From Deltaproteobacteria bacterium (lineage in GTDB: Bacteria; SAR324; XYD2-FULL-50-16), in contig JABHWU010000105.1 in assembly GCA_018657625.1 (NCBI GenBank), forward strand, positions 1-36,857: a stretch of DNA of 36,857 nt, given 5' to 3'. The position numbers were made by a program, and so were the translations under genes. The notes under the pieces were generated by a model. The model saw nothing but the letters and a program-made list of their open reading frames with translations, was not told where the DNA came from and did not search any database. Of this stretch, positions 1 to 31,180 are shown piece after piece (position 1 is the first letter of the stretch; the number at the start of each line of letters is the position of its first letter).

Positions 1-1727
1 ACCAATTCGAAGTTCAACTTGAAATCTGTCCCCGGATAAATTGTCTCGGTGTCGTTCAAATGATCGCATAATAAATGAACAGCACGATCTGACTGCGGGT
101 TGGTCAGCCGATGTAACTTTACAGTCAACGTTTTGTTGTTTTCATCAGGGACAAGATCTATATCCGCATTGTATATTTGCCGCAGTAAAGGACGTGTATC
201 GTCTTTTCTTCCCAAACTCTCCCGTAATACTTGAGCCATTGCAGTTTCTGCTCGGTACGCAATCATCTTGACCGTGTCAAGGAGCTGTTTTCGAGCCGGT
301 GCTATTCGATAAAACTGCTCCTCGTCGGCTAATTCTTCGAATGGGATATGCCTTTTTGTCTGCTTACGTTCTTTTTTTAGCGACTCCAATTCCTTCTGCA
401 TAAAATCAATCTCTTCTCGAAGCTCGCCTTTTTTTTGCTCGTATTGCTCCATTTTTTTGGGAGTCAATTCACTTCCATTCATTTGTAAATCATGGAACTT
501 GGCTTTTTTGCGTCCCAATATGCCGACAAGACTTCTGACTTTTCCATCCAACTGGCGATACATCGGATTAACTACATGTTTGGTCTCGTTAAACCCATAT
601 AGTTTATGGCCTGTTAATGAGTCTATATCAAAGTTTTCCATCATATATTTAAAGAAGTTCTCCTGAGACCATCTGGAAAACATATGGGCGGCGATTTCTG
701 TAAAATCGGCTTGAAAATCAGTGCTCAATACTGAAGTTTGATGACCGCTGCGACATTTTCTGTGAATTTCACGCACCCAGATTTTATCTCCCAGTAGAAA
801 TCCGCGCTCAGCCAGCTCCATTTCAATAATTTCACCATGGGGCATTTTAACCGCATATTTGGCAAACTCCGCTTCCGGCCATTTCTGTTTCGGATACTTC
901 TGGTAGGTCTGGCAAGCTATGCGCGTCTCCCACATCCGTTGGAAAAATTCCGGACTATAACCCTCTCGGTCGAAGATCAAAACAAAACGCGGACAGTATG
1001 GATCGCTTTTTAGTTCCTGTCGGTCCGGTTGCCCAGGAACATCCCGGACTAGATGCGGAACAATTTCATTCTCCAGTATATCCAACAGCCCGGTTGTAAA
1101 GGCGCTGGAAATTGTAAAAAAGGGGCGTCCCTGAGCGTCATTCACCCAGTAATCCGTCATTCCCCTTAAAGTTAATTTCTGCCTGGATACATAGCGCCGG
1201 GGAAGTTTATTTTTCGATCCGTAGTATGTACGAACATGGCCATCCACATAAAGCACCCCAGCTGCATCCGGATTTTGGTCCATCCAATCTTTTGACAGCC
1301 TGCCGCTCCACTGACTGACATTTTTCTCCTCCACAGATAAGAAACTGACTTTTTCTCTGAGGGTGCGAACTTCCGGAATCCGGTCCAATCCCAATATCCT
1401 GCCCCATTCGCCTGGCTCCTGGTATCTGAGCCGTTCGATGTTTTTCACCCTGGCCAGAGCCATAAAACCCAGAAGCAAAAAAACGTTGTACAGACTGTAG
1501 TACCCATCCGGAAGCTTGAAAAACTTATCGGAGTACTTTAAAAGTCCGTTCATCAACAGTGCAGGAAGAGCAAAAAGAACACCACCTCCCCTGACATCTT
1601 GCAGATCTCCGAATATTACTTCGGCATGATCGATCATACCAGTAGCGGCAGCCACTCTTTCTACAGTCCGGGTGCATGCCTGGCCCATCGGGCTATTGCT
1701 GTCTTCTATACTTCTTTCACTTTTGTT
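1..1727 (-). CDS. Transposase DDE catalytic part (orfB), partial
   Basis: This frame is open from the A9 run near 1727 to the window edge, about 575 codons without a stop, and continues outside. The catalytic triad is readable: VLYVDGHVRTYYG (first Asp), FVLIFDREGYS (second Asp) and RWSQENFFKYMMEN (Glu). A charged coiled-coil stretch follows (GELREEIDFMQKELESLKKE), and the partial end is rich in Asn and Asp. An internal ATG at 1688 (MGQACTRTVERV) has no clear ribosome site, so expression as the C-terminal part of a -1 frameshift product is more likely. The product would cut and join the ends of the insertion sequence. It has no disruptions, so the element may be active. Confidence 0.75.
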
Positions 1728-2693: not shown

Positions 2694-5600
2694 ATGAACA
2701 TTTCCTGGCGAGGGCTTTTTGGGGGGTTAGTTTTTGGGTTATACCTGATTCCCGGATTTCTATTCAGTGCGGAATTTTCCCAAAAATCTCTTTCTGTAAA
2801 TATTACCCAAATTGAAACGCAAAACTTCCCCCAGGTCTTGTTATACACTTTGATTGAGGACGCAGATGGTATCCCTATTGAAAACCTGACGGCGAAAGAT
2901 ATTTCCATTTCAGAGTTTTTAAATGGAACCAACCAAGCGATCGAAGCTACCGATATATCTTTAAAAAAATCAGGTAAAGTTCAAAGAGGTGTTTCTATTG
3001 CTTTAATTTATGACTCCAGTGGCAGTATGTGGGGACGATTGCCCAAGATTAAGAAAGCGACTAAAACACTATTTAATGCAATGTCCCAAAATGATCGTGC
3101 TGCCATTATTACCTTTTCCTCAACCGTAAACGTCATTCAACCCTTTGTAGGGAAAACCATTGATACAGATAAAAATGGGATTTTAGATCTTGAAGAATCC
3201 GTCAATGCTTACCAAACCAAGGGAAAAACCGCACTTTATGATGCTTTAGATAAAGGGATAACACTTTTGAGCCAAGAGAGTGGCGTAAAGGCAGTGGTTG
3301 TCTTCGCGGATGGTGAAGATAATAATAGTGCCACTACAAAATATGAACTTATCCAGCGGGCAATTAGGGCGCAAATACCCATTTACACGATTGGATTGGG
3401 TCTCAAACTTAACCCCGCCCCCTTAAAAGAGATTGCCAGGCGTACCAGTGGCTTATATTATTCTGCGCCAAGTATATCAAATATCCAAAATGTCTATCTT
3501 AGTTTTTTTAAATCGGTATCTCGATTATATGAAATCGCTTATCGAACTCCATTGGATCAGTTTGATGGCTCTTCAAGAAAAATTTCATTGGGTATTAAAG
3601 GATATCATCTAAAGCAACAAACTAGTCTTAAAGAATATACCGTCGTCTCAGCCCCTGAAATTTCCAGGCACGCTTCCATGCTCAAATATGATCAACCCGG
3701 TTTCCAACAAACGTTTGCCAAACCGATTGATATCAGAGCGTTGGTAAAAACTGATGCTCCACCAAATCAGTTAAGGGTCACACTTTTTTATCGATCAATT
3801 GCCAGTAAAAAAAGCTTTTCTCAAATCCAAATGCAGCAGCAAGAGAATGTGTTTTACGCGACAATCCCTTCTGCCAATGTAAGCGATCCTGGAATTGAAT
3901 ATTATTTATTGGCATTCGATGGAAAATTAACGGCTACTTCTCCCAAAAAGGGCGCAATTTTCGGACAGACCTATCAAATTGCTGTTGATCCAAATTTTGC
4001 ACCGGTGATTGAACATGTACCATCTAAACTGATCGAACCCAAACGGGGGTTTAAAATTGTTGCCGAAGTTACGGACCAAACCAAATCTGTTGATACTGTC
4101 AAATTGTTTTATAGAAAAGCCGGGATATTCCACTATACATCTCTTGAGATGTTTCTAGAAGTACCTCACCAATATTCCGCTGTCATTCCCCTGGCCGAGA
4201 TTACCACTAAAGGCGTGCAATATTATATTTCGGCCTGGGATGACAGCGGTGTCAGATCTGATTCCGGCAGTGCTGACAAACCATATCTAATCAAAGCAAG
4301 TGCACCGGTGATTTCTATTCCAACCCAAACGCTAAAATTTGATGATCCTGATTATTTTCATGATCCCGGGTACCCGATTCAAATTGATATCCAAATTAAG
4401 AGTGATGTAACAAATGATCTAATTCAGACATATTTACATTATCGCAAACACTCAAAAGCTGATATTGCTTTTACTAGAAAGCTAATGCAATTCGATAAAT
4501 CAATTAAGACATCCTCAGCCTTTATTCCCACTCAAAGTATTGGAAAAGAGGGAATGGATTATTTTGTAACCGCCTTCGATGGGTTAATAAACGTTCGCTA
4601 CCCATCAATGGCTGATTCCAAGAATATCACCAAAACAATAAGGGTTCGAAAAAAGAATATCAAAAATCCATTAATCATTCTAGTTAAAACACGACCTGAA
4701 ATCATTCCTGTTGAAAAATCACCTAAAATCATTCTAGTTAAAACACGACCCAAAATCATTCTAGTTAAAACACGATCCAAAATCATTCCTGTTAAAAAAC
4801 GACCTAAAATCATTCCTGTTAAAAAACGACCTAAAATCATTCCTATTAAAAAACGACCTAGTATTGTTCTCTCGCAAGCGACTCAATTATTAAGTCAGCC
4901 CGGATACAGGCATAACCCTTTGCAAGCGATTAAGATTCAACTAAAAATAGCGGGTGGTTCAAGTTATGAGAAATTAAAGACAAGGCTTTATTATCGTAAT
5001 GTCGGTAACAGTAAAGATTCATTTACTGAAATCCAAATGTATAGCGTTAAAAAATTAGGGATATTTTCAGAGAGCATTCCCAGCAGCAAGTTAACAGGAA
5101 AACGTCTGGAATATTATGTAACCGTCTCTTATCTTTCTTCAAATAAAGCTGAAACACCAACGATTCATGTGATTCAGTTACTGCAAAAAGTTGATCCTGT
5201 TATTGACCATCAATACAAGAAAGCTGCAGTTTTGGGAGAATTAGCTACACTAAACGTTAAAATAAAAGCCCCTGAGCCAAAACAGTTTAAGGTCTTTCTC
5301 AATTATCGACGTCCATATCATAAAGTATTTACTTCAACTCAAATGGAATTCGGTGCAGATAATCAGTATAAAACGATTTTTCCGGTGGCTGAGCTAACAT
5401 CAGCAGGTATGGAATATTTCATCGCTGTATTTGATAGCCAGGGGAAAATTTATTATCATGGCACCAACCATTTTCCGCATAATACTATTGGCATTGAAAT
5501 GGTTTTTATTAAGGGTGATTGTTTTCGAATGGGAGACACGTTCCACTTGGGGACCAAAATGGAAAAACCAACCCATACTGTTTGTGTTGACGATTTTTAC

Positions 5601-6185
5601 CTTGGGAAATATGAAGTTGATCAAAAATTATGGATGCGTTTTGTTAATCGAGAGAACCCTTCTTATCATAAAAATAGTTTAGATTTTCCTGTTGAGAATG
5701 TCAGTTGGAAGGATATTCAGAACTTTATCAAGCAATTAAACCGGGGAAGGGAAAAACAATTTCGATTACCGACAGAGGCAGAATGGGAATATGCTTGTAA
5801 AAGTGGGTCAGAAAACCTTTTTTCTCTTCGTTATAAAAATAGTCATATCAAAGACCTAGGCCATTCCCTGGCAAATTATGACGGAATGGAACATTTGGAT
5901 CAGTGGAATGGCACGGCACCTGTTGGTAGTTTCCCGACCAATTTATTCGGACTCCATGATATGAGTGGCAATGTATGGGAATGGGTTTTGGATACCCATG
6001 AAAAATATACCAAATCAGCTAAAAGGATTGATAACCCTATTTATAATAAACCCGGTGCTGATCGGATCATTCGCGGTGGTGGCTGGTTAGACACGCCGCT
6101 AGAATTAAGATGCTCCAATAGAGAACACGTCCCTGATACCTATAAGAGTCGTTTTATTGGTTTTCGACTTTTTCTCCAAATGTAA
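2694..6185 (+). CDS. Exported VWA protein with YYR beta-sandwich repeats and C-terminal FGE-like domain
   Basis: This is a 1,163-residue protein. A hydrophobic N-terminal signal ends near GFLFSA (residues 1-26). A von Willebrand A domain spans about 100-285, with an intact MIDAS: D107-S-S109-G-S111, a Thr in GKTALYDA, and Asp in FADGED. At least five repeats of about 100 residues follow, each with FYR or YYR, an amphipathic strand, an IP turn and a G-x-EYY-x-A-x-D end. A lysine/proline/isoleucine tract (about 661-723) built from 27-base repeats separates the third and fourth. The last 230 residues are an FGE-sulfatase/PvdO-like fold (RLPTEAEWEYAC, SGNVWEWV, RIIRGGGWLD, GFRLF). The cysteine pair of aerobic formylglycine-generating enzymes is absent, so it is probably structural or ligand-binding. 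A TTG six bases upstream is an alternative start; neither has a clear ribosome site. It is probably a surface adhesion or scaffolding protein. Confidence 0.85.
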   Translation: MNISWRGLFGGLVFGLYLIPGFLFSAEFSQKSLSVNITQIETQNFPQVLLYTLIEDADGIPIENLTAKDISISEFLNGTNQAIEATDISLKKSGKVQRGVSIALIYDSSGSMWGRLPKIKKATKTLFNAMSQNDRAAIITFSSTVNVIQPFVGKTIDTDKNGILDLEESVNAYQTKGKTALYDALDKGITLLSQESGVKAVVVFADGEDNNSATTKYELIQRAIRAQIPIYTIGLGLKLNPAPLKEIARRTSGLYYSAPSISNIQNVYLSFFKSVSRLYEIAYRTPLDQFDGSSRKISLGIKGYHLKQQTSLKEYTVVSAPEISRHASMLKYDQPGFQQTFAKPIDIRALVKTDAPPNQLRVTLFYRSIASKKSFSQIQMQQQENVFYATIPSANVSDPGIEYYLLAFDGKLTATSPKKGAIFGQTYQIAVDPNFAPVIEHVPSKLIEPKRGFKIVAEVTDQTKSVDTVKLFYRKAGIFHYTSLEMFLEVPHQYSAVIPLAEITTKGVQYYISAWDDSGVRSDSGSADKPYLIKASAPVISIPTQTLKFDDPDYFHDPGYPIQIDIQIKSDVTNDLIQTYLHYRKHSKADIAFTRKLMQFDKSIKTSSAFIPTQSIGKEGMDYFVTAFDGLINVRYPSMADSKNITKTIRVRKKNIKNPLIILVKTRPEIIPVEKSPKIILVKTRPKIILVKTRSKIIPVKKRPKIIPVKKRPKIIPIKKRPSIVLSQATQLLSQPGYRHNPLQAIKIQLKIAGGSSYEKLKTRLYYRNVGNSKDSFTEIQMYSVKKLGIFSESIPSSKLTGKRLEYYVTVSYLSSNKAETPTIHVIQLLQKVDPVIDHQYKKAAVLGELATLNVKIKAPEPKQFKVFLNYRRPYHKVFTSTQMEFGADNQYKTIFPVAELTSAGMEYFIAVFDSQGKIYYHGTNHFPHNTIGIEMVFIKGDCFRMGDTFHLGTKMEKPTHTVCVDDFYLGKYEVDQKLWMRFVNRENPSYHKNSLDFPVENVSWKDIQNFIKQLNRGREKQFRLPTEAEWEYACKSGSENLFSLRYKNSHIKDLGHSLANYDGMEHLDQWNGTAPVGSFPTNLFGLHDMSGNVWEWVLDTHEKYTKSAKRIDNPIYNKPGADRIIRGGGWLDTPLELRCSNREHVPDTYKSRFIGFRLFLQM
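4674..4862 (+). repeat. In-frame 27-bp minisatellite, seven units
   Basis: Seven consecutive 27-base units start with ATCATTC and encode nine-residue blocks such as IIPVKKRPK or IILVKTRPK. Units 5 and 6 are identical, and unit 7 differs from them at only a few bases. Units 1, 3 and 4 form a second subtype, and unit 2 is the most divergent. The repeat keeps the reading frame of the VWA protein and forms a basic, extended linker. Unit number could vary by slippage. The near-identity implies recent expansion. Confidence 0.9.
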
Positions 6186-6203
6186 TTCCGATATTTTTAA
6201 CAC

Positions 6204-7481
6204 TCACCATTTCCAATTGAAACTAAAGTACATCTGTTGCGATGCGATATTTGGCGCTACTCGAAATGTAATCGGTTGCGTAGTTGCCGGTTCAGGTTCA
6301 CTATCACGCTTATAGTAAAAAGCGTGATAAAGTTCTAAACTAACAATAGCAACCGTGATTAAATCATACAATCTCACATTTTCCTGGTAACTACTGATTT
6401 TACTTGTGTTACTATCATACCTTTTTTTCAAAGCGATTCGTTTGGCAGCAGTCGTTGCGACTTTGTATTCTTTACTGATATCAGAATTCTCATCGCTGAG
6501 TTCATTAGCTTTGTCGGCCTCAGAACGGGACGAAAAGACTGCAATAGCAGCAGAAAAAATATAGGCAATGTGCCACTTTTCATCGGTGGTTATTTGTGAT
6601 CCACTTTTAAGTTCCTGATCAATTTGTTCTTTTTCCATTACCCCGGTGATGGCTTGAACTTCCACCTTGTCCGAGGTTAGCTTTACAGCCAACGTTTCCA
6701 AGGCACTGTCCAATGTGATAAGTCTGCCATTATGTTTGATTGTCGTAGCGGCATAGATGGATCCATCTTTGCTGTTAATGATCTTTCCGGACAGAATATA
6801 TAAACCGTCGCTCACTTTGCGCATACTAGTTGAGATTACGCGATCCACACCCAGCTGTTCTCCAATTATCAGCGCGCATTGATCACTGGTACAACCTGTT
6901 TTATTTTGAATCTCATCCGGATCAAATTTATCGATCTCAGCACTGGCAACCAAATTGAAAGCTTTTTTTCGGAACAAGGCTGATCGGAATACATCACTAA
7001 ATGCCTTTATTTGGGTTTCGGATAGGTTTTTAGCTTCCAAATCCAATACAGCGACCAGTTTTTTAGAAACTTTTATATCCATGATGAAATCCACTTCTGT
7101 TTGTCCTAGGATTTCATTTTGGTTGTTTCGGTCGAATGCTTTTAGAGTTAAATGAATGGCATTCCCTCTTGGTTCATACATGCCACTGATCATTACTGCG
7201 GCTGCATCCTGATTTGAATCCAGGAAAAGGCGATATCCTGTAAATCGCCGTTGCATTGCAAGATAGATTTCAGTTTCAATTTTTTTTGCAGAGCTATCTT
7301 TTTTTAAAGAAAATTGGTTAAGTACCTGAATATAAATACTTTTTTTATCTGGTAGCTTAATCGCAGACTTTTGGAAATATTCTGCAACTTGATCAGCCGC
7401 TTCATCGAGATTCAATGCAAAACTATTACATGGAAATAAGAACCAAATAAACAATATAAAGAACGAAAAAAATTTTATCAT
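6204..7481 (-). CDS. Exported protein with CsgG/LpoB-like (DUF2380/FlgT-type) domains
   Basis: This 425-residue protein has a signal peptide (MIKFFSFFILFIWFLFPC, cleaved near SFA). Residues about 45-130 and 140-260 each look like the alpha/beta fold of CsgG, TolB-N and LpoB relatives. The second is clear: VAVLDLEAKNLSE at the start, FNLVASAEIDKF in the middle, then GCTSDQCALIIGEQLGVDRV, the usual Cys pair, and GSIYAATTI at the end. A further hydrophobic stretch (IAYIFSAAIAVF) lies near 310. It is convergent with the VWA gene, with 18 bases between them and no visible terminator hairpin. Such proteins are usually periplasmic and outer-membrane associated and control cell-wall or secretion machines; its partner is unknown. 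A link to the neighbouring VWA protein is only inferred from position. Confidence 0.6.
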   Translation of the reverse strand: MIKFFSFFILFIWFLFPCNSFALNLDEAADQVAEYFQKSAIKLPDKKSIYIQVLNQFSLKKDSSAKKIETEIYLAMQRRFTGYRLFLDSNQDAAAVMISGMYEPRGNAIHLTLKAFDRNNQNEILGQTEVDFIMDIKVSKKLVAVLDLEAKNLSETQIKAFSDVFRSALFRKKAFNLVASAEIDKFDPDEIQNKTGCTSDQCALIIGEQLGVDRVISTSMRKVSDGLYILSGKIINSKDGSIYAATTIKHNGRLITLDSALETLAVKLTSDKVEVQAITGVMEKEQIDQELKSGSQITTDEKWHIAYIFSAAIAVFSSRSEADKANELSDENSDISKEYKVATTAAKRIALKKRYDSNTSKISSYQENVRLYDLITVAIVSLELYHAFYYKRDSEPEPATTQPITFRVAPNIASQQMYFSFNWKW

Positions 7482-7600
7482 TATTTTAACTGTTATGGAT
7501 GGATAGTGATTTTTTTAATAAGTAGTGGCGACATTATCCATTATTTTAATAATTTTATCTAGAAGAATAGTTTAAAAACCTCCTTTGCTTCGTGATTTGC

Positions 7601-10345
7601 TTAATGCGCTTCCAGCCAGTTTTCCCCAATTCCTACTTCTGCAATTAAGGGGACTTCCAGGGTTAAAACATTCTCCATCTCCTGTTTCACCAAATCAACA
7701 ATGATGGAGACTTCTTCTTTCGGCGTGTCAAAAACCAATTCATCATGAACCGACAGAATCATTTTGGTATTGAATTTCTCACAGCTAAGTTTTTGATCAA
7801 TGGCAATCATTGCTAATTTAATAATTTCCGCGGCCGAGCCCTGAATGGGAGTGTTGATAGCGGCACCCTCTGCCATCCGACGAAGTAACCCCCTGGAGTT
7901 TATAGCCGGTAAATAGCGTCGACGTCCCATCAATGTTTTTGCAAATCCATTATTTCGAGCCTGGGTTAAGAACTGCTCCTGTAAGCCATGGATGGTTGCA
8001 TATTTTTCGAAATACCGGGCTATGAAATTTTTAGCTTCTGTTCTTGAGCTATTGGTGATTAGGGCCAGACGTTCAGGTCCCATCCGGTAAATCAAACCAA
8101 AATTGACTTCTTTAGCTTTGGAACGCATTTCTCTGGTAACGGCCGTTACTGGAACATCAAAGATGGTAGCAGCTGTAATAGCATGGATATCAAGGTTTTG
8201 GCGATAAGCTTCCATAAAGGTTGGATCTTTAGAATAATGAGCGATTACCCTTAACTCGATTTGACTATAATCCGCAGAAACCAGGACATTGTCAGCGTCT
8301 GCAGGAACAAATGCACCCCTTATTCTACGGCCTTCTTCCGTCCGAATCGGAATATTTTGCAGATTGGGTTTGTCAGATGCCAAACGACCGGTGGCAGCTG
8401 AAGTTTGACGAAAAGATGAATGAATTCGCCCGGTTTTAGTATTGATAAACGTCGGCAATTGATCAACATATGTATTTTTTAGTTTATTCAATTCCCGATA
8501 TTGAAGAATAACTTTTGGTAAGGGATGTTCCAACATTTTTTCCAGGGTTTCCTCGCCTGTTGATAACTTATTACCCAGTTTTATTTTTTTAGGTTTAACT
8601 TTACAGAGTTCATGGACCTTTAGTTTATTGTATAATACATTCTGCAACTCAACGATTGAATTTATGTTGAATCGTTCCCCCGATAGTTCAAAAATGTTTT
8701 CACTGATAGCTTCTAATCTTAAAGTAAATTCATCTGAAATCTTCTTCAGAATATCCACATCGATATTAACACCACCCATCTCCAATATCGCTAGCACTTC
8801 AGCTAAGCGAATTTCTACAAATTGATAAGTATTGATCATCTGCGTCCGGTTCAATTGCTGAAGCAAATGATCATAAAGACGCCACAATTGCCCGGTAGAT
8901 TCGCAGTAGGCTTTGTAAAAATCAGCTTCAGATTCAAGAACCGTTTGTCCGTCATCTGGTTTATTTTTCTTAAAAGGCACAAAGTACTGTTTTTTATAAT
9001 TCAGCTGGCGAAAGGCGATTCCTTCCAGGCTATAATCCCTTTCATCAGATTCTACCAAATGCGCTGCTAACATCACATCCATAATATTACTGCCAGTTTT
9101 AATATCGTCATGCCATAACAATTGAAGCAGGTGTTTCCAGTTATAAACCACTTTAGGAAAAACCGGGGATTCAATAAAAGGTTTTAATTTCTGAAATATT
9201 GCCTGTCTGTGGTCAGAAAACGTAGGATCTTCAAAATTCAGATACCAGGCTTCTGAAGATTTATTCGATAAAACCAGGCCTACTATTTCACTATTTATAA
9301 AGCTTTCTCCTTTTTTAATCACATCAAGTGCCAGGGGTTCTGATGGAACAATAGAATCAACCAATTTATCAAATTCATCCTGGGTCTGGATAGCAATGGA
9401 TTTTTGTTCTAATGTTTTTTGGGTTGTTTCAACAGGAACTTCCGTTTCAACGATTGATTCAAATGATTTAAACGATTTGCTGGAAGGAGATTTAAACTTT
9501 TTCAAGAACGATTTAAATTCCAATTCTTCCAATATTTCAATCAGAGCTTTATTTTCGGATACTTGTGTTTTTTCCAGATTTAAGTCCTGCAGGTCCACCT
9601 CAATTGGAACATTTATATCAATGGTCACCAGTTCCCGGGAAAGCAGCGCTTTCTCTCTGTCATTAATTAGTTTTTCTTTGAGTTTGTTTTTAGGTAATTG
9701 ATCAATGGCTTCGTAAACGGCTGGAATTGATCCGAATTGGGTGATCAGTTTAATAGCAGTTTTTTCACCTACCCCTTTGACACCCGGAATATTATCGGAA
9801 GCATCACCCATCAAACCCAGAATATCAATAACCTGATTCGGTCGGCACGCAAATTTTTCAAATACTTGCTTAATCCCTATTTTTTGATTTTTATGATTGA
9901 ACATCACATTTTTTTCTGTGACCAACTGCATATAGTCTTTATCACTGGTAACCATGACCCCTTCCATATCTTTCTCAGAGCAGATCCGCATCAAAGTGCC
10001 TATGATGTCATCAGCTTCAAAGCCCGGCATGATAATATAAGGTAAGTTTAAGGCTTCAACCAGCCTAGGTAGATAAGACAGTTGTTCAACCAGATCATCC
10101 GGCATTTTTTCCCGATTGGCTTTATATTCCGGAAATTGTTTATGACGGAAAGTAGGTTCTTTGGAATCAGAAACCACTGCCAGATAATCGGGTTTCTCTG
10201 TTTCAATGATTTTTACAATCTGTGAAAAAAAGCCATAAATGCCACTGGTATTTAATCCTTTAGAGTTGATCATCGGATTTCTGATCATGGCGAAATAGTT
10301 GCGGTATAAAATTGCCATTGAATCCAGGGCAAAAAGTTTAGCCAT
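7601..10345 (-). CDS. polA: DNA polymerase I
   Basis: This 914-residue protein has the full three-part layout. Residues 1-290 are the 5'-3' flap nuclease (GFEADDIIGT, TSDKDYMQL, GDASDNIPGVKGVGEKTA). The middle, about 320-520, is a 3'-5' exonuclease fold that has lost most catalytic carboxylates. The C-terminal polymerase has motif A DYSQIELRVIAHYS, motif B RSKAKEVNFGLIY and motif C SVHDELVF. Motif B continues YRMG where most relatives have YGM. The ATG at 10345 follows AAGAGGAAAT. It lies 13 bases behind exonuclease III in the same direction, downstream of yaaA. It fills gaps in repair and removes RNA primers. Loss of proofreading, as in Taq and Bacillus enzymes, is inferred from the residues. 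Confidence 0.97.
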   Translation of the reverse strand: MAKLFALDSMAILYRNYFAMIRNPMINSKGLNTSGIYGFFSQIVKIIETEKPDYLAVVSDSKEPTFRHKQFPEYKANREKMPDDLVEQLSYLPRLVEALNLPYIIMPGFEADDIIGTLMRICSEKDMEGVMVTSDKDYMQLVTEKNVMFNHKNQKIGIKQVFEKFACRPNQVIDILGLMGDASDNIPGVKGVGEKTAIKLITQFGSIPAVYEAIDQLPKNKLKEKLINDREKALLSRELVTIDINVPIEVDLQDLNLEKTQVSENKALIEILEELEFKSFLKKFKSPSSKSFKSFESIVETEVPVETTQKTLEQKSIAIQTQDEFDKLVDSIVPSEPLALDVIKKGESFINSEIVGLVLSNKSSEAWYLNFEDPTFSDHRQAIFQKLKPFIESPVFPKVVYNWKHLLQLLWHDDIKTGSNIMDVMLAAHLVESDERDYSLEGIAFRQLNYKKQYFVPFKKNKPDDGQTVLESEADFYKAYCESTGQLWRLYDHLLQQLNRTQMINTYQFVEIRLAEVLAILEMGGVNIDVDILKKISDEFTLRLEAISENIFELSGERFNINSIVELQNVLYNKLKVHELCKVKPKKIKLGNKLSTGEETLEKMLEHPLPKVILQYRELNKLKNTYVDQLPTFINTKTGRIHSSFRQTSAATGRLASDKPNLQNIPIRTEEGRRIRGAFVPADADNVLVSADYSQIELRVIAHYSKDPTFMEAYRQNLDIHAITAATIFDVPVTAVTREMRSKAKEVNFGLIYRMGPERLALITNSSRTEAKNFIARYFEKYATIHGLQEQFLTQARNNGFAKTLMGRRRYLPAINSRGLLRRMAEGAAINTPIQGSAAEIIKLAMIAIDQKLSCEKFNTKMILSVHDELVFDTPKEEVSIIVDLVKQEMENVLTLEVPLIAEVGIGENWLEAH

Positions 10346-17728: not shown

Positions 17729-17992
17729 AAGATAGCCTATTATGCACTGTCTACAGACTACCAAATACCGGTTTTAAGCAGCGAAAAGGGAACCTGGACT
17801 ATCGCCCCCTTTTTTGATTCCGGTTTATTGGTCCAGCAAATTGATAACAAAACTGTCAACTATCACTCCTATGGAATTGGTAGCTATTTTTTCCTCAAAA
17901 AAATAGCTATTCCTGGCATTGGGCTAGTCATCGGGACCAACACCGAATACCAGGATAGCTTTTTTAAATTCACTATCGGTTTTGATATCTAA
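17729..17992 (+). pseudogene. C-terminal scrap of an outer-membrane beta-barrel protein
   Basis: The frame following the pump's stop codon, the same frame in fact, reads on for 87 codons without a start. It shows alternating beta strands: TWTIAPFFDSGLL, YHSYGIGSYFFL and a final FFKFTIGFDI. This is how BamA/Omp85-type (surface antigen D15) or similar barrels end. It stops at TAA 17990-17992, overlapping the tail of the convergent cytochrome b gene by three bases. With no start or ribosome site it is most likely the remains of a third operon gene after deletion. Readthrough of the pump stop is possible but unlikely. Confidence 0.55.
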
Positions 17993-18627
17993 TTTGCACG
18001 TTCCCACTCTTCAACTTCCGCTTCTTCCAATTCTTCCCAACCGCTGATCATAGCTTTGATATGAGCAAAAAGGGAGTGACCGGTTGTTGTCATATAAACA
18101 TGAATGATAACAAATGAAAGGATCGCAAATGCACCGGCAACGTGCAGAAAAGCCATCACACCCAGAGATAAAAAATCGATCCCCCAATCCGCCCAATTGT
18201 TATAACCCCAGTATAAAAACCCAGTTAGCATTTGTACAGGCAATAGTAGGGCAGCCAATACAAGATAAATGATTCTTTGCAAAGGATTATGCTTGGCATG
18301 TTTTTTCTTTGGAACCGGGTGAGTTTCTCCTTTAAAAATCCCATGGACATAATACCACATAACTTCCAGGATTTTCTTTGTGGTTGGAATATATTGCTTC
18401 CACTCTCCGGTGGTTAATAGCCAGAAAATAAAAAAGAAAAAGGCAATCAACCAGCCTAACCCCACCCAACTATGAATATTCACAGCCTTTCCAAATCCGA
18501 AAAGGTGGTATTCGTTATGGATTTCAAAACCCGTAAGTAATAATATAAATATTAATACCATTTGTACCCAATGCCAAAACCGCTCATAACGGGTATAAAG
18601 ATATGTATTTATCTTTTTTTTCTTCAT
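17989..18627 (-). CDS. Cytochrome b561-type quinol-binding membrane subunit
   Basis: This 212-residue protein has four hydrophobic helices of the PF01292 type (thiosulfate reductase/hydrogenase/formate dehydrogenase cytochrome b). Candidate heme b ligands are H in YERFWHWVQM (helix 1), H in NIHSWVGL (helix 2) and the pair in LHVAGAF and FVIIHVYMTTTGH (helix 4). A strong AGGAGG site lies inside the last codons of the octaheme cytochrome gene, and the two genes are only two bases apart, so translation is coupled. It should pass electrons between the quinone pool and the membrane-anchored octaheme cytochrome. This is unlike Shewanella OTR, which is soluble. The acidic C-terminus (EELEEAEVEEWE) faces an unknown side. 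Confidence 0.9.
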   Translation of the reverse strand: MKKKKINTYLYTRYERFWHWVQMVLIFILLLTGFEIHNEYHLFGFGKAVNIHSWVGLGWLIAFFFFIFWLLTTGEWKQYIPTTKKILEVMWYYVHGIFKGETHPVPKKKHAKHNPLQRIIYLVLAALLLPVQMLTGFLYWGYNNWADWGIDFLSLGVMAFLHVAGAFAILSFVIIHVYMTTTGHSLFAHIKAMISGWEELEEAEVEEWERAN

Positions 18628-18629
18628 TA

Positions 18630-20291
18630 CTAATCCTCCTTTGAATTACTGCGGATTCCAATAACGATACGACCCAATGCATGGAAAATAATTCCCAGAA
18701 AAGATAAAGCAATGACTATCCATCCGATGGTATCCAAAATGGAAAATTGATCCCGTCCGGGCATATAAAAACCTGATAACTTGGCTAAACGACTCCCTTC
18801 ACTCTTGTGGCATTCCTGACAACGCACCACATTTTCTTTAGGCGCAACCATATGGGTGATCGGGAACACATAACTGGTTTCAACAAAATCAAATTCACCT
18901 GAATAGGGAAGTCCTATATAATCCTGCCCAAATTTGATGGCGTTATTCCAATCAAATTTTTTCCAGTAAGCTGATTTATCAGTTTTTCCTTTTGGAAACA
19001 AATGAGGAGCAACCAGAGTTTTGTTCACTTTATCATAGGGCTGTTTTGCGGTGTGAACTTTAAAAGGAAAGATCCTTGAATTAGGATCATTCTGATTACC
19101 GACCGGAGGGTTTATCATCACCGAACCCGTCGGATCAATAGTATCCTTCAGGGTTAAATGAGTGAGTGATCCGTTATACCACAAATATTCAGGTTTAACG
19201 TTTTTCTCCCATGTCATATCTCCTTTTTTAGTATCATAAGCATTTTTTCCAAATTTATCTTTAATAACAAATGGTTTACCCCCTTTTTTCTTACCAGCTG
19301 TAGACCAATCCCACCTAACTTTAGTCGGGTTAACCCTTGCGAATTTTGGAATATGACAAGCTTGACAGGCCACCTTATCAGTATGATCATTCGCTTTTGC
19401 GTTTACTTTATGAGGAACGTCACTATGACAAGATACGCAAGTTATTTTAGGTGTCAAATCATCCTCAATTAATGACTTTCGTTCTTCCGCAGCTGGTGTG
19501 GTATAGACTCTACCGGCGATATTATGAAGTGTGGTAGAATGACATCGCGTACAATCAAAATCTTGTCCGTCAATACCCATATGAACGTCCAGATGTTTAT
19601 CCGGTTTCACCAGGGATGAGTCTAAATCTCCATGCTTAACACCATCACCACCACCTCCGTAAAAATGGCAGGTCCCACAATTTTTACGATTCGGTCGTGA
19701 AACGCTTTGCGCGGTCTTATTCCAATCCGGGGGGTTATATGTTTTTTTATTCCCCTTAAATACAGTGGGTTTCGATACTGGGTTCCCGGCACCGGCAGGA
19801 AATTTTTTATATTTACCTGTTGTTTCATGGCAAACCAAACAATCTACTTTACTTTGATCACTAAAATCGAAATCCTTGCCTTTCCAACCATAACCGGCAT
19901 GACAAGATGTGCAACGAGCCTCGTTGCTTTGGATATTAATTCAGAAGTTGTTTACGGATAAACCACCCTTTCCCAATTGGGCACTTTCTTCAGTATGGGG
20001 GTCTCGCCAGGTCCAGTGAATTGTCTTTTGGAACTGCATAGCTGCTTCCGAATGACAACTCAGGCAAGCCTTTGTTACTTCCGGACCTGTCTTGAAATCC
20101 TGTTTCAATATTTCATGCTTTGAATGGTCTGCGGTAATCCAAAGCTGTTTACCCTTCGTAGCCTGCTTAGCCATTGTTCGACCGGGAGCTGTTTGTCCTA
20201 AAATACTTGTCGGTATAAAACACACCGCCAAAAGACAGCACATCATCGGAACGAAAATAAAGCCGGCACGACGGTATCTTACATGCCTCAT
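18630..20291 (-). CDS. Octaheme cytochrome c, tetrathionate reductase family, with in-frame TGA (putative selenocysteine)
   Basis: The frame gives 553 residues if TGA 19941-19943 is read through. A signal peptide (to about residue 33) precedes eight CXXCH sites: CLSCH, CTSCH, CLVCH, CGTCH, CTRCH, CVSCH, CQACH and CQECH. CGTCHFYGGGGDGVKHGDLD carries the Asp and Lys I associate with the lysine-ligated heme (D150/K153 in Shewanella OTR). A C-terminal helix (IGWIVIALSFLGIIFHALG) anchors it. The TGA at codon 117 follows SVNNF and precedes INIQSNEARCTSCHAGYGW in the same frame. From memory, relatives have NNFC here, the active-site Cys64. A hairpin at 19911-19927 fits a SECIS. I infer a selenoprotein reductase of tetrathionate, nitrite or hydroxylamine; a nonsense pseudogene is the alternative. 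Start 20291 has GGAG five bases upstream; 20294 is also possible. Conventional annotation would split it at 19941. Confidence 0.85.
19911..19943 (-). promoter_or_regulatory. Putative bacterial SECIS element with its UGA
   Basis: UGA (19941-19943) is followed by 13 nt and then GCAACGAGGCTCGTTGC (19927-19911), a perfect hairpin of six G/C-rich pairs with loop AGGCU, or eight pairs closing on one G. Known bacterial SECIS elements place the apical loop 16-37 nt after UGA, with a G in its first two positions. Here the loop starts after 19 nt and contains GG. In Escherichia coli fdhF the loop AGGUCU lies at almost the same distance. The hairpin encodes S-N-E-A-R-C of the mature protein. Confidence 0.7.
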
Positions 20292-20344
20292 CATATCTCC
20301 TTTAATGAAAATTACAATCGCAAGAATAAAAACAATTGCAGATT

Positions 20345-20872: not shown

Positions 20873-21376
20873 TTAGTATCGACTTAAAGCTCTTTTAAAA
20901 GCCCTTAAATGGTTTTGTGATGCTTTCATCAAACGTTCGAAAACATCTCTGACGTCACCGGGTAACTCCTGTTTTAAAAAAAGCTGGTACATATTGATAT
21001 TATCAATTTCTGCCTGTACACCTGCCTTCAAAGAGTCTTTCACAGACCCGGTTTCAATCAAATGATTGGCAGCTATATCTTGTGGAACAGAAATATTATG
21101 TGTATTAAAAACCGGAATCAACATTTCAATATGTCTTTTTTCTGCTTTTATAATATTAGAAAATGGACGTTTATTCCCAAATTTTTCAATAATATAGCGA
21201 TACTCTGCCTGAGCCAGATATTCATCCTGAATGGCGTAATTTAACATTTTCGTTAAATTCAATGTTGTTTCACTACTGGCCCCTTTTGCCCCAAAATTGG
21301 TTCCAGCGAAAATTGTTAAATTGAAAAATGCTAAAATTAATATGCTATTGGACAATATCTTTATAAAAGTTTTCAT
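20873..21376 (-). CDS. DUF2202 ferritin-like exported protein
   Basis: This 167-residue protein has a signal peptide (residues 1-24, ending NLTIFAG). The mature part is a four-helix bundle with a spaced carboxylate/histidine pattern: DEYLAQAEYRYI in helix 1, IKAEKRHIEML in helix 2, GVQAEIDNINMYQLF in helix 3 and KASQNHLRAFKRAL in helix 4. This matches the erythrin/ferritin-like diiron arrangement (E, ExxH, E, ExxH-like) of the DUF2202 family, though the last motif has Q-N-H rather than E-x-x-H. Members are found in anaerobes and archaea with no settled function; iron binding or peroxide removal in the periplasm is an inference. A strong terminator follows. It is transcribed alone. Confidence 0.85.
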   Translation of the reverse strand: MKTFIKILSNSILILAFFNLTIFAGTNFGAKGASSETTLNLTKMLNYAIQDEYLAQAEYRYIIEKFGNKRPFSNIIKAEKRHIEMLIPVFNTHNISVPQDIAANHLIETGSVKDSLKAGVQAEIDNINMYQLFLKQELPGDVRDVFERLMKASQNHLRAFKRALSRY

Positions 21377-29836: not shown

Positions 29837-31180
29837 CTAAAATGGAATAATACTGCCAATCAGGTAAGATATGGCATAGGCGCAGGCACCGACCACTAAC
29901 ATTTCAAAACCGGATTTGAACCAGTTAACACCGGTAACGAATTTTTTCATGGCACCGCTAAGGAAAAGACCGACAACAGTTACTATAGTCGCAATATAAA
30001 AGATATCCATTGAATCCAGTGATGATTTCAATAAAATCAGATAAGGTAAGACAGGAAAACAGGCCCCAACCACAAATGCAAAGAATATTACAAACGCACT
30101 TTTTAGTCCGCTTTTATGTTCTAGTTCAGTGACTCCCAGTTCATCAATGACCATTTCCCTGGCCCATAAATCTTCGTTTTCTGTGATTTTATCAACCACC
30201 TGTTCTAATAAATTTCCGCTGAAACCTTTGTTTCGATATATTTTACGGACCTCTTCCTTTTCAATTTCAGGAATAAGTTTTATTTCAAGCCGCTCCTGGG
30301 AAATCTCATGATTATAATAGTCATTCTCACTTTTATTACTGATAAATTCCCCCGCAGCCATACTCAGCGCACCTGCGACTGTCGCAGCCAGAAGAGTGAT
30401 CAGAATGATATGAGGGGGTTGACCAGCACCGGCAACACCTGCCAGCAAGGCAAATATGCTGACAACCCCATCATTCATTCCAAATGTGATCTGCCTGATT
30501 ATTTCACCACCTTGTAAATGAAAGTTATCTAAAAAATCATTAGGGTGTTGAATATCTGCTGTCGATTTAACCGGTTCATAGAAAGAAGCGTCATGACCGC
30601 AAATTGGGCAATACGATGCGGGTTGGGTAGATGCTACCTTAAGGTTTCCGCATATCTTACATACATAAATGTTCAACAAATCAATATCTTCGTCTTTTTG
30701 TAAAGCCCTGTGAGCAAGTTTTAGTAATCTTGAATGGATTTTTTCAACCTCCATTGCCCATTTCATAGAAAGCCTGGCCACTGAATTCTGCTGGTTCGAT
30801 GACTCAGATTTTATCAGTTTTCTGAATTCAGGATACATTTTCTTATATTCATATTCTTCACCTGCGATCGATTTTGTAAGATTTTCAAGTGTCGAACCCG
30901 ATTCAAAAGGTGATGAACCCGGTATAAAATCCTCTCTTAGAGCGTTTTGGTGATTATTAATATGAATCCTTTCTGCTTCGGTCAGAGCTTTATACAGCAG
31001 TGATATATTCGGATATCCCTCACTGTCAGCTATTTCAGAGTATTGTTCATACTGTATTGAAGCATTATATTCTCCTGTAATCGCTTCTTTCAGATATTTA
31101 GAAGAAAGTTCATCTGGTTCAACACTCCTCATCAATCCTTTAAGAAGTTCTTGATTTGTTGAATTGTCTGAGTACGTCAT
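29837..31180 (-). CDS. Rubrerythrin - rubredoxin-like - VIT1 (CCC1) iron transporter fusion
   Basis: This 447-residue protein has three parts. Residues 20-165 are a rubrerythrin diiron bundle (EAITGEYNASIQYEQYSE, LTEAERIHINNHQ, IAGEEYEYKKMYPEF, MEVEKIHSRLL). Residues 172-200 are a rubredoxin-like zinc/iron knuckle (VCKICG ... CPICG). Residues 220-447 are a VIT1/CCC1 transporter (GGEIIRQITFGMNDGVVSIF, GALSMAAGEFISNKSENDYY, five hydrophobic helices). It resembles membrane-bound ferritin A (MbfA), a ferritin-like/VIT1 fusion that exports iron, but adds the CxxC knuckle of true rubrerythrins. It likely senses or oxidises Fe(II), or reduces peroxide, and moves iron across the inner membrane. Confidence 0.93.
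   Translation of the reverse strand: MTYSDNSTNQELLKGLMRSVEPDELSSKYLKEAITGEYNASIQYEQYSEIADSEGYPNISLLYKALTEAERIHINNHQNALREDFIPGSSPFESGSTLENLTKSIAGEEYEYKKMYPEFRKLIKSESSNQQNSVARLSMKWAMEVEKIHSRLLKLAHRALQKDEDIDLLNIYVCKICGNLKVASTQPASYCPICGHDASFYEPVKSTADIQHPNDFLDNFHLQGGEIIRQITFGMNDGVVSIFALLAGVAGAGQPPHIILITLLAATVAGALSMAAGEFISNKSENDYYNHEISQERLEIKLIPEIEKEEVRKIYRNKGFSGNLLEQVVDKITENEDLWAREMVIDELGVTELEHKSGLKSAFVIFFAFVVGACFPVLPYLILLKSSLDSMDIFYIATIVTVVGLFLSGAMKKFVTGVNWFKSGFEMLVVGACAYAISYLIGSIIPF

What the first reader, a model, noticed from the sequence alone, without database searches (positions are those of the whole stretch)
18630..20291. Octaheme tetrathionate-reductase-type cytochrome with one in-frame TGA: likely selenoprotein
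The frame is otherwise perfect over 553 codons. All eight CXXCH sites, the Asp/Lys motif of the lysine-ligated heme, the signal peptide and the C-terminal anchor are intact, and codons on both sides of the TGA (codon 117, between SVNNF and INIQSNEARC) are typical of the family. I recall a cysteine (Cys64 of Shewanella OTR) near the active-site heme at this place. Sec replacing a redox-active Cys is the hallmark of selenoproteins. I know of no Sec-containing multiheme cytochrome. TGA is a stop elsewhere in the window, so general recoding is excluded.
Basis: partly seen in the sequence, partly recalled or inferred. Interest (0 to 1): 0.95.

Follow-up and report, generated by a model that had tools for sequence, protein, structure and literature searches.

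The report
Eight-heme cytochrome gene encoding selenocysteine
This gene for a bacterial eight-heme cytochrome has an in-frame UGA codon exactly where its relatives encode a conserved cysteine, followed by a conserved predicted RNA hairpin, so the protein is predicted to contain selenocysteine, likely beside its active-site heme; the family already stands in a 2026 catalogue of selenoproteins.

Summary
On the minus strand (20294-18630) an octaheme tetrathionate-reductase-family cytochrome gene (TIGR04315, 624 bits) has one in-frame TGA, codon 118, aligned with Cys64 of Shewanella OTR (1SP3). The genome has tRNA-Sec, SelA, SelB and a SelD that itself has an in-frame TGA. The same TGA stands in 13 genomes of another order and in a 13-heme form with an Hmc-type operon; 42 homologous protein predictions begin exactly at the next residue. 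A predicted 7-bp hairpin follows, within the published bacterial SECIS model. Its five core codons are identical in 14 of 14 TGA genes, the most synonymously conserved spot of the gene, but not in Cys relatives. The tree forces at least 4 Sec/Cys changes; one Cys gene keeps an intact hairpin, probably a fossil. Sequencing error or pseudogene is very unlikely. Added here: the column, the SECIS, repeated Sec/Cys exchange, the long form and likely transfer into this genome. Sec in the protein and its catalytic role are inferred.

The parts
18630..20294 (-). octaheme tetrathionate-reductase-family cytochrome gene, predicted selenoprotein (554 codons + TAG)
   Evidence: TIGR04315 624 bits over cut-off 375; 1SP3 E 7e-127
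19941..19943 (-). in-frame TGA, codon 118, predicted selenocysteine; column of Cys64 in 1SP3
19911..19927 (-). predicted bacterial SECIS hairpin: 7-bp stem, GGC loop, 20 nt between UGA and loop
   Evidence: identical in 14 of 14 TGA genes and in L105
19899..19913 (-). second CXXCH site (residues 128-132, presumed active-site heme 2)
   Evidence: motif list; role of this heme recalled from 1SP3
19635..19637 (-). Lys220 in GGGGDGVKHGD, equivalent of Lys153 of 1SP3 (heme ligand there; role recalled)
   Evidence: invariant column K220
17989..18627 (-). cytochrome b561-family membrane partner, 2 nt downstream
   Evidence: PF01292; a b561 gene follows the OTR gene in all 13 further short-form TGA loci fetched
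18636..18743 (-). C-terminal helix (residues 518-553), presumed membrane anchor
   Evidence: pLDDT 83-93 over residues 521-550; anchor role inferred
20297..20303 (-). likely ribosome-binding site AAAGGAG before ATGATG
   Evidence: sequence shown

Best explanation
The gene encodes an octaheme tetrathionate-reductase-family cytochrome whose single in-frame UGA is predicted to be read as selenocysteine, directed by the predicted hairpin just downstream, and the selenocysteine likely works as the reactive selenolate beside the active-site heme. Step 1 (inferred): SelB carrying Sec-tRNA binds the hairpin 20 nt after the UGA and inserts Sec. Step 2 (inferred): the protein is exported, eight hemes are attached, and the C-terminal helix holds it next to its cytochrome b561 partner, which would pass electrons from the quinol pool. 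Step 3 (inferred, least certain): the selenolate would attack a bond of the substrate, such as the S-S bond of tetrathionate or another oxyanion of S or N, and the selenenyl adduct would be reduced by electrons from the heme chain. Cys relatives would do the same more slowly. The gene was probably acquired by this lineage from the other order in which the TGA form is found.
For: Sec machinery complete: tRNA-Sec 64 bits, anticodon TCA; SelB 373 bits with the wing_3 domain; SelA 512 bits; SelD 368 bits, itself with one in-frame TGA, in TCG-U-AAK. Column = Cys64 of 1SP3. TGA in 13 genomes of 389 searched, 216 of which have the gene at E<=1e-100; the match list was cut, so a lower bound. Three of these lie on contigs of 4-5 Mb. 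42 of 60 truncated homologues begin exactly at the next residue; DNA not seen, overlap with the genomes above possible. Codons 124-128 identical in 14 of 14 TGA genes; window 122-128 ranks first of 505 for synonymous identity (0.96; gene mean 0.47; same window in 23 Cys genes 0.48). Hairpin meets the published model in 14 of 14 TGA genes and 1 of 23 close Cys genes. The observed code is one of 2 among 1152 synonymous codings of SNEARC that reach that stability. Exact 18-nt element in 4 of 395 genomes, each time 12 nt after a TGA of this family. tRNA-Sec in 14 of 15 genomes with a TGA form.
Against: No protein evidence. The 53-nt stretch is not unusually stable against shuffles (z -0.20, 69 of 200 as stable); the isolated hairpin just reaches the model's -7.5 kcal/mol; and in 10 of the 14 TGA genes some other position has a stronger hairpin of this type, so the case rests on conservation, not energy. 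The stem never varies, so there is no covariation. PF09106 (SelB-wing_2) was not found at E<=0.001. One TGA-form genome, G433, shows no tRNA-Sec, and one TGA gene (L074) is also frameshifted. The genome is a 79.8% complete draft with two PolA genes, so a mixed bin cannot be fully excluded. 23 of 29 tested genomes with only Cys forms (one of them Ala) seen have tRNA-Sec, so Cys serves even where Sec is available. The role at the heme is inferred; the predicted model was poor there (mean pLDDT about 51 around residue 118 and 29-46 over residues 201-310).
Confidence: 0.62

Rival explanations
1. Sec is inserted but is not the catalytic nucleophile: it tunes or protects the active-site heme, serves as an occasional heme ligand, or makes synthesis of the enzyme depend on selenium supply.
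For: Cys in most relatives and Ala in one (L019); repeated Sec/Cys exchange; 23 of 29 tested genomes without a TGA form seen have tRNA-Sec.
Against: It is the only non-heme Cys/Sec column of the presumed mature protein and nearly invariant; many bacterial selenoproteins are held to derive from homologues whose catalytic Cys was replaced (PMC13188914 section 10).
Confidence: 0.34
2. The TGA is a sequencing or assembly error, or a fresh nonsense mutation of a Cys codon in a decaying gene.
For: Draft genome; no reads available; one relative with the TGA also carries a frameshift (L074).
Against: Same TGA in 15 genes of 15 genomes, three on multi-megabase contigs; 12 of the 13 relatives show no other stop; the downstream synonymous codons are frozen only in TGA genes.
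Confidence: 0.02
3. The UGA really terminates: a one-heme 117-residue fragment is made and translation restarts just downstream, giving two proteins.
For: In 7 of 14 TGA genes the next codon is ATG or GTG, and the protein collection holds such truncated predictions.
Against: In the window the next codon is ATT, in five others ATC and in one GTC; the downstream part would lack the signal peptide and so would probably not receive hemes (inference); the hairpin conservation would be unexplained.
Confidence: 0.01

Closest known systems
Tetrathionate reductase family octaheme c-type cytochrome listed as selenoprotein (TIGR04315, WP_331457571.1, 'GenBank annotated') in PMC13188914
   Same: Same protein family, one Sec
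   Different: That is one table row with no motif, and the only place where 'octaheme' occurs in the main text; here the column, SECIS, Cys/Sec distribution and operons are worked out, in another genome
Octaheme tetrathionate reductase of Shewanella oneidensis, PDB 1SP3
   Same: Homologous over residues 60-503, Asp/Lys motif, Cys64 column
   Different: Cys instead of predicted Sec; the aligned chain has no counterpart of the C-terminal helix; the physiological substrate of neither was tested here
ExtKL multiheme cytochrome of Geobacter (NF040886)
   Same: Candidate Sec-containing multiheme c-type cytochrome (PMC1914089 and PMC5877670, passages)
   Different: Five heme sites, another family
Bacterial SECIS elements of formate dehydrogenase and other genes
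   Same: Stem-loop after UGA, G in the first two loop positions, spacing 16-37 nt (model in PMC13188914 section 5)
   Different: Here a short perfect 7-bp stem, frozen in sequence across the TGA genes and overlapping the heme-2 motif

Membership tests
Bacterial selenoprotein gene | in-frame UGA with conserved coding frame on both sides | tested here: met
Bacterial selenoprotein gene | selA, selB, selC, selD in the genome | tested here: met
   on other contigs of the draft
Bacterial selenoprotein gene | SECIS-type hairpin within the published constraints | tested here: met
   just at the energy limit; no covariation because the stem is invariant
Bacterial selenoprotein gene | Cys homologues at the UGA column | tested here: met
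   31 Cys, 1 Ala of 32 non-TGA genes used; 110 of 110 listed proteins covering it
Bacterial selenoprotein gene | Se in the protein | not testable with these tools
   needs mass spectrometry or 75Se
Octaheme tetrathionate reductase family (TIGR04315) | HMM score over curated cut-off | tested here: met
   624.3 against 375
Octaheme tetrathionate reductase family (TIGR04315) | eight CXXCH sites and the Lys of the active-site heme | tested here: met
   GGGGDGVKHGD; K220 invariant; ligand role recalled
Octaheme tetrathionate reductase family (TIGR04315) | reduction of tetrathionate, nitrite or hydroxylamine | not testable with these tools
   no assay possible
Selenoprotein OTR as listed in PMC13188914 | same Sec position as WP_331457571.1 | not tested
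   that sequence was not retrieved; the table gives no motif

The most novel reading that the evidence does not exclude
Octaheme reductases run on a heme-selenolate centre: the enzyme switches repeatedly between Cys and Sec in evolution, and an 18-nt RNA element written over the heme-2 motif shapes not only the codons but the amino acid (Ala in place of the Pro of most Cys relatives), leaving fossil SECIS elements where Sec reverted to Cys.
Probability: 0.45. Interest if true: 0.72.

Novelty: new member of a known kind. Interest (0 to 1): 0.52.

Why it matters
Gene callers cut these enzymes after the UGA: 42 homologous predictions in the protein collection begin at the next residue, so the real enzyme is easily missed. 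A selenolate beside a multiheme reductase centre would be an unusual catalytic pair in sulfur or nitrogen respiration. The family offers natural Sec/Cys pairs, including two side by side in one genome (L076) and one Cys gene with an intact SECIS hairpin (L044). [quoted passage not shown] this family would make the exchange directly testable.

Tried and rejected
Sequencing error, pseudogene and general TGA recoding were rejected. RNA folding energy alone was uninformative (z -0.20). PF09106 gave no hit, but the full SelB model and wing_3 did. Of 52 genomes of the window's own phylum, only its own showed a TGA in this gene. The structure model was too poor around the hemes, so no fold search was made. 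No paper with Shewanella, tetrathionate and Cys64 was found; the spelling 'octahaem tetrathionate reductase' gave none.

Rows dropped before counts: L075-L081 (wider copies of L039-L043, L045, L046) and L052 (copy of L027) as duplicates, and with L076 the second, Cys-type OTR of G154; and L023 (24% identical, Thr at the column). Genes under 55% identity were left out of the 'close Cys' set of 23. Of the 216 genomes with a match, only those with fetched loci were read at the codon.

Full report
Observation. The gene lies on the minus strand from ATG 20294 to TAG 18632-18630, with a single in-frame TGA at 19943-19941, codon 118. It matches TIGR04315 over the whole model (624 bits, cut-off 375), and the only solved relative found by sequence is 1SP3, the Shewanella octaheme tetrathionate reductase (organism recalled). 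Counting along that alignment, the TGA column is Cys64 (NNF-C). TGA ends 6 of 23 genes counted in the window.

Machinery. The window's genome (draft, 3.63 Mb, 142 contigs, 79.8% complete, 3.2% contaminated) has tRNA-Sec (64 bits, over cut-off; ARAGORN tca), SelB (373 bits, with SelB-wing_3 and the SelB barrel), SelA (512 bits) and SelD (368 bits). SelD has its own in-frame TGA in TCG-U-AAK, a known Sec site (recalled). PF09106 alone was not found at E<=0.001.

Relatives. In 389 genomes of the order of G098 (the genome of L027, titled 'Deltaproteobacteria bacterium'), 216 have a match at E<=1e-100 and 13 show a TGA inside in the rows listed; the list was cut, so 13 is a lower bound. All 13 have it in the same column. 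Three lie on contigs of 4-5 Mb. The 32 non-TGA genes used have Cys in 31 cases and Ala in one (L019). Of 170 distinct homologous proteins seen (best 120 listed in each, out of more than 7000 hits each; the window's own truncated product is one of the 170), all 110 that cover the column have Cys; 60 begin after it, 42 of them exactly at the next residue and 5 two residues further. Their DNA was not seen and some may be the same genes as above, but truncated calls after a UGA are the obvious reading.

SECIS. Thirteen nt after the TGA starts a perfect 7-bp stem with a GGC loop, 20 nt between UGA and loop. The published model asks for a 3-9 nt loop, a 4-16 bp upper stem, G in the first two loop positions, 16-37 nt spacing and -7.5 kcal/mol or less (PMC13188914 section 5, read in full). 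It is met, at the energy limit for the isolated hairpin, by 14 of 14 TGA genes and by 1 of 23 close Cys genes. Codons 124-128 (AAC GAG GCT CGT TGC) are identical in 14 of 14 TGA genes; the seven-codon window 122-128 has synonymous identity 0.96, first of 505 windows, against 0.47 for the gene and 0.48 for the same window in 23 Cys genes. All 14 TGA genes have Ala at residue 126; of the 23 close Cys genes 19 have Pro and 4 Ala. Of 1152 codings of SNEARC only two reach -7.4 kcal/mol, and the observed one is of these two, with a GG loop; but one coding of the Pro version reaches the same energy with a GCC loop, so stability alone does not demand Ala. The model's preference for a second G or U in the loop would. 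The exact 18-nt element was found in 4 of 395 genomes of the phylum of G098, every time 12 nt after a TGA of this family; the reversed control showed 0 in the rows listed. Three of those four were already among the 13. Against: the energy is not unusual against shuffles, in 10 of 14 TGA genes some other place has a stronger hairpin of this type, and the stem is invariant, so covariation cannot be shown.

Second architecture. The fourth hit, in G098, is a 702-codon cytochrome gene with 13 CXXCH sites whose OTR part groups with Cys-type genes in long open frames of the window's own family (100/99), behind HmcB/HybA-like and HmcC/HybB-like genes. It carries the same TGA and element. It is the fifteenth TGA gene.

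Evolution. On a tree of 46 genes with the trait columns masked, Sec/Cys needs 7 changes, at least 4 forced by well-supported branches; with the long form 8, at least 6 (which warns of long branches). L044 has TGT with an intact SECIS hairpin, and no tRNA-Sec was found in its genome (stricter filters; incompleteness is possible); L047 has the element one base away from intact. These look like Sec-to-Cys changes, which the review calls rare (section 10); direction was not tested. tRNA-Sec was found in 14 of 15 TGA-form genomes and in 23 of 29 tested genomes without a TGA form seen.

Origin of this copy. The window's gene is up to 75% identical to TGA genes of the other order but at most 54% to genes of its own family and nests among the former (98/98), so transfer is likely. 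PolA on the same contig is 68% identical to that of one same-family genome, 51-57% to three same-class genomes and 37-41% to eight genomes of the other order; named PolA hits include SAR324 bacteria at 54-57%, but also a partial 'Desulfobacterales bacterium' entry at 66%. Six further same-family genomes have only a PolA at 36-38%, and this genome has a second such PolA, so a mixed bin is not fully excluded. Base composition fits the 20 stretches taken from the rest of the genome (window GC 0.370, tetranucleotide correlation 0.993; one stretch had no readable letters).

Operon. A cytochrome b561-family gene starts 2 nt after the cytochrome gene, and one follows it in all 13 further short-form TGA loci fetched and in L027. 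G154 has a Cys OTR-b561 pair directly before a Sec OTR-b561 pair.

Function. Sec insertion is inferred from all this; I put it at about 0.96. That the residue stands beside the active-site heme rests on its place ten residues before the second CXXCH and on recall of the 1SP3 work; the predicted model was too poor to test it. Nucleophilic catalysis on S-S or oxyanion substrates is my preferred but untested reading. On checking, the review passage that I had used for the catalytic role (section 8) did not say that Sec usually replaces redox-active Cys; section 10 says it of many selenoproteins. I therefore set the combined statement (Sec and catalysis) at 0.62 and let the non-catalytic reading keep 0.34.

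Literature. Searches of an open-access library (listings; 20 of 40 papers listed) gave one mention of a Sec OTR: a table row in PMC13188914 (abstract, passages and sections 5, 8 and 10 seen). ExtKL was a Sec cytochrome candidate in PMC1914089 (passages) and is discussed in PMC5877670 (passages). The main texts of PMC2398784 and PMC5029168 do not hold the words cytochrome or heme (term searches). Subscription papers and preprints were not searched. The finding is real, but a member of a known kind.

Noticed in passing
L106 (G098:C42), 3949-8176: Hmc/Hyb-type operon whose cytochrome has 13 CXXCH sites and a TGA with the same SECIS element: a second, longer Sec OTR architecture.
   Followed up: partly
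L076 (G154:C72), 4013-9202: Tandem Cys-OTR-b561 and Sec-OTR-b561 pairs in one genome.
   Followed up: partly
L044 (G359:C622): Cys (TGT) gene with an intact SECIS hairpin and no tRNA-Sec found in its genome: likely fossil SECIS.
   Followed up: partly
window 7601-10345: DNA polymerase I close to one same-family genome and to same-class genomes; the genome has a second, 36% identical PolA on C120, so duplication or a mixed bin.
   Followed up: partly
window 29837-31180: Protein with both rubrerythrin and VIT1 domains.
   Followed up: no
window 20873-21376: Rubrerythrin/DUF2202-like protein upstream of the cytochrome gene; no tblastn match in the 14 related loci.
   Followed up: no
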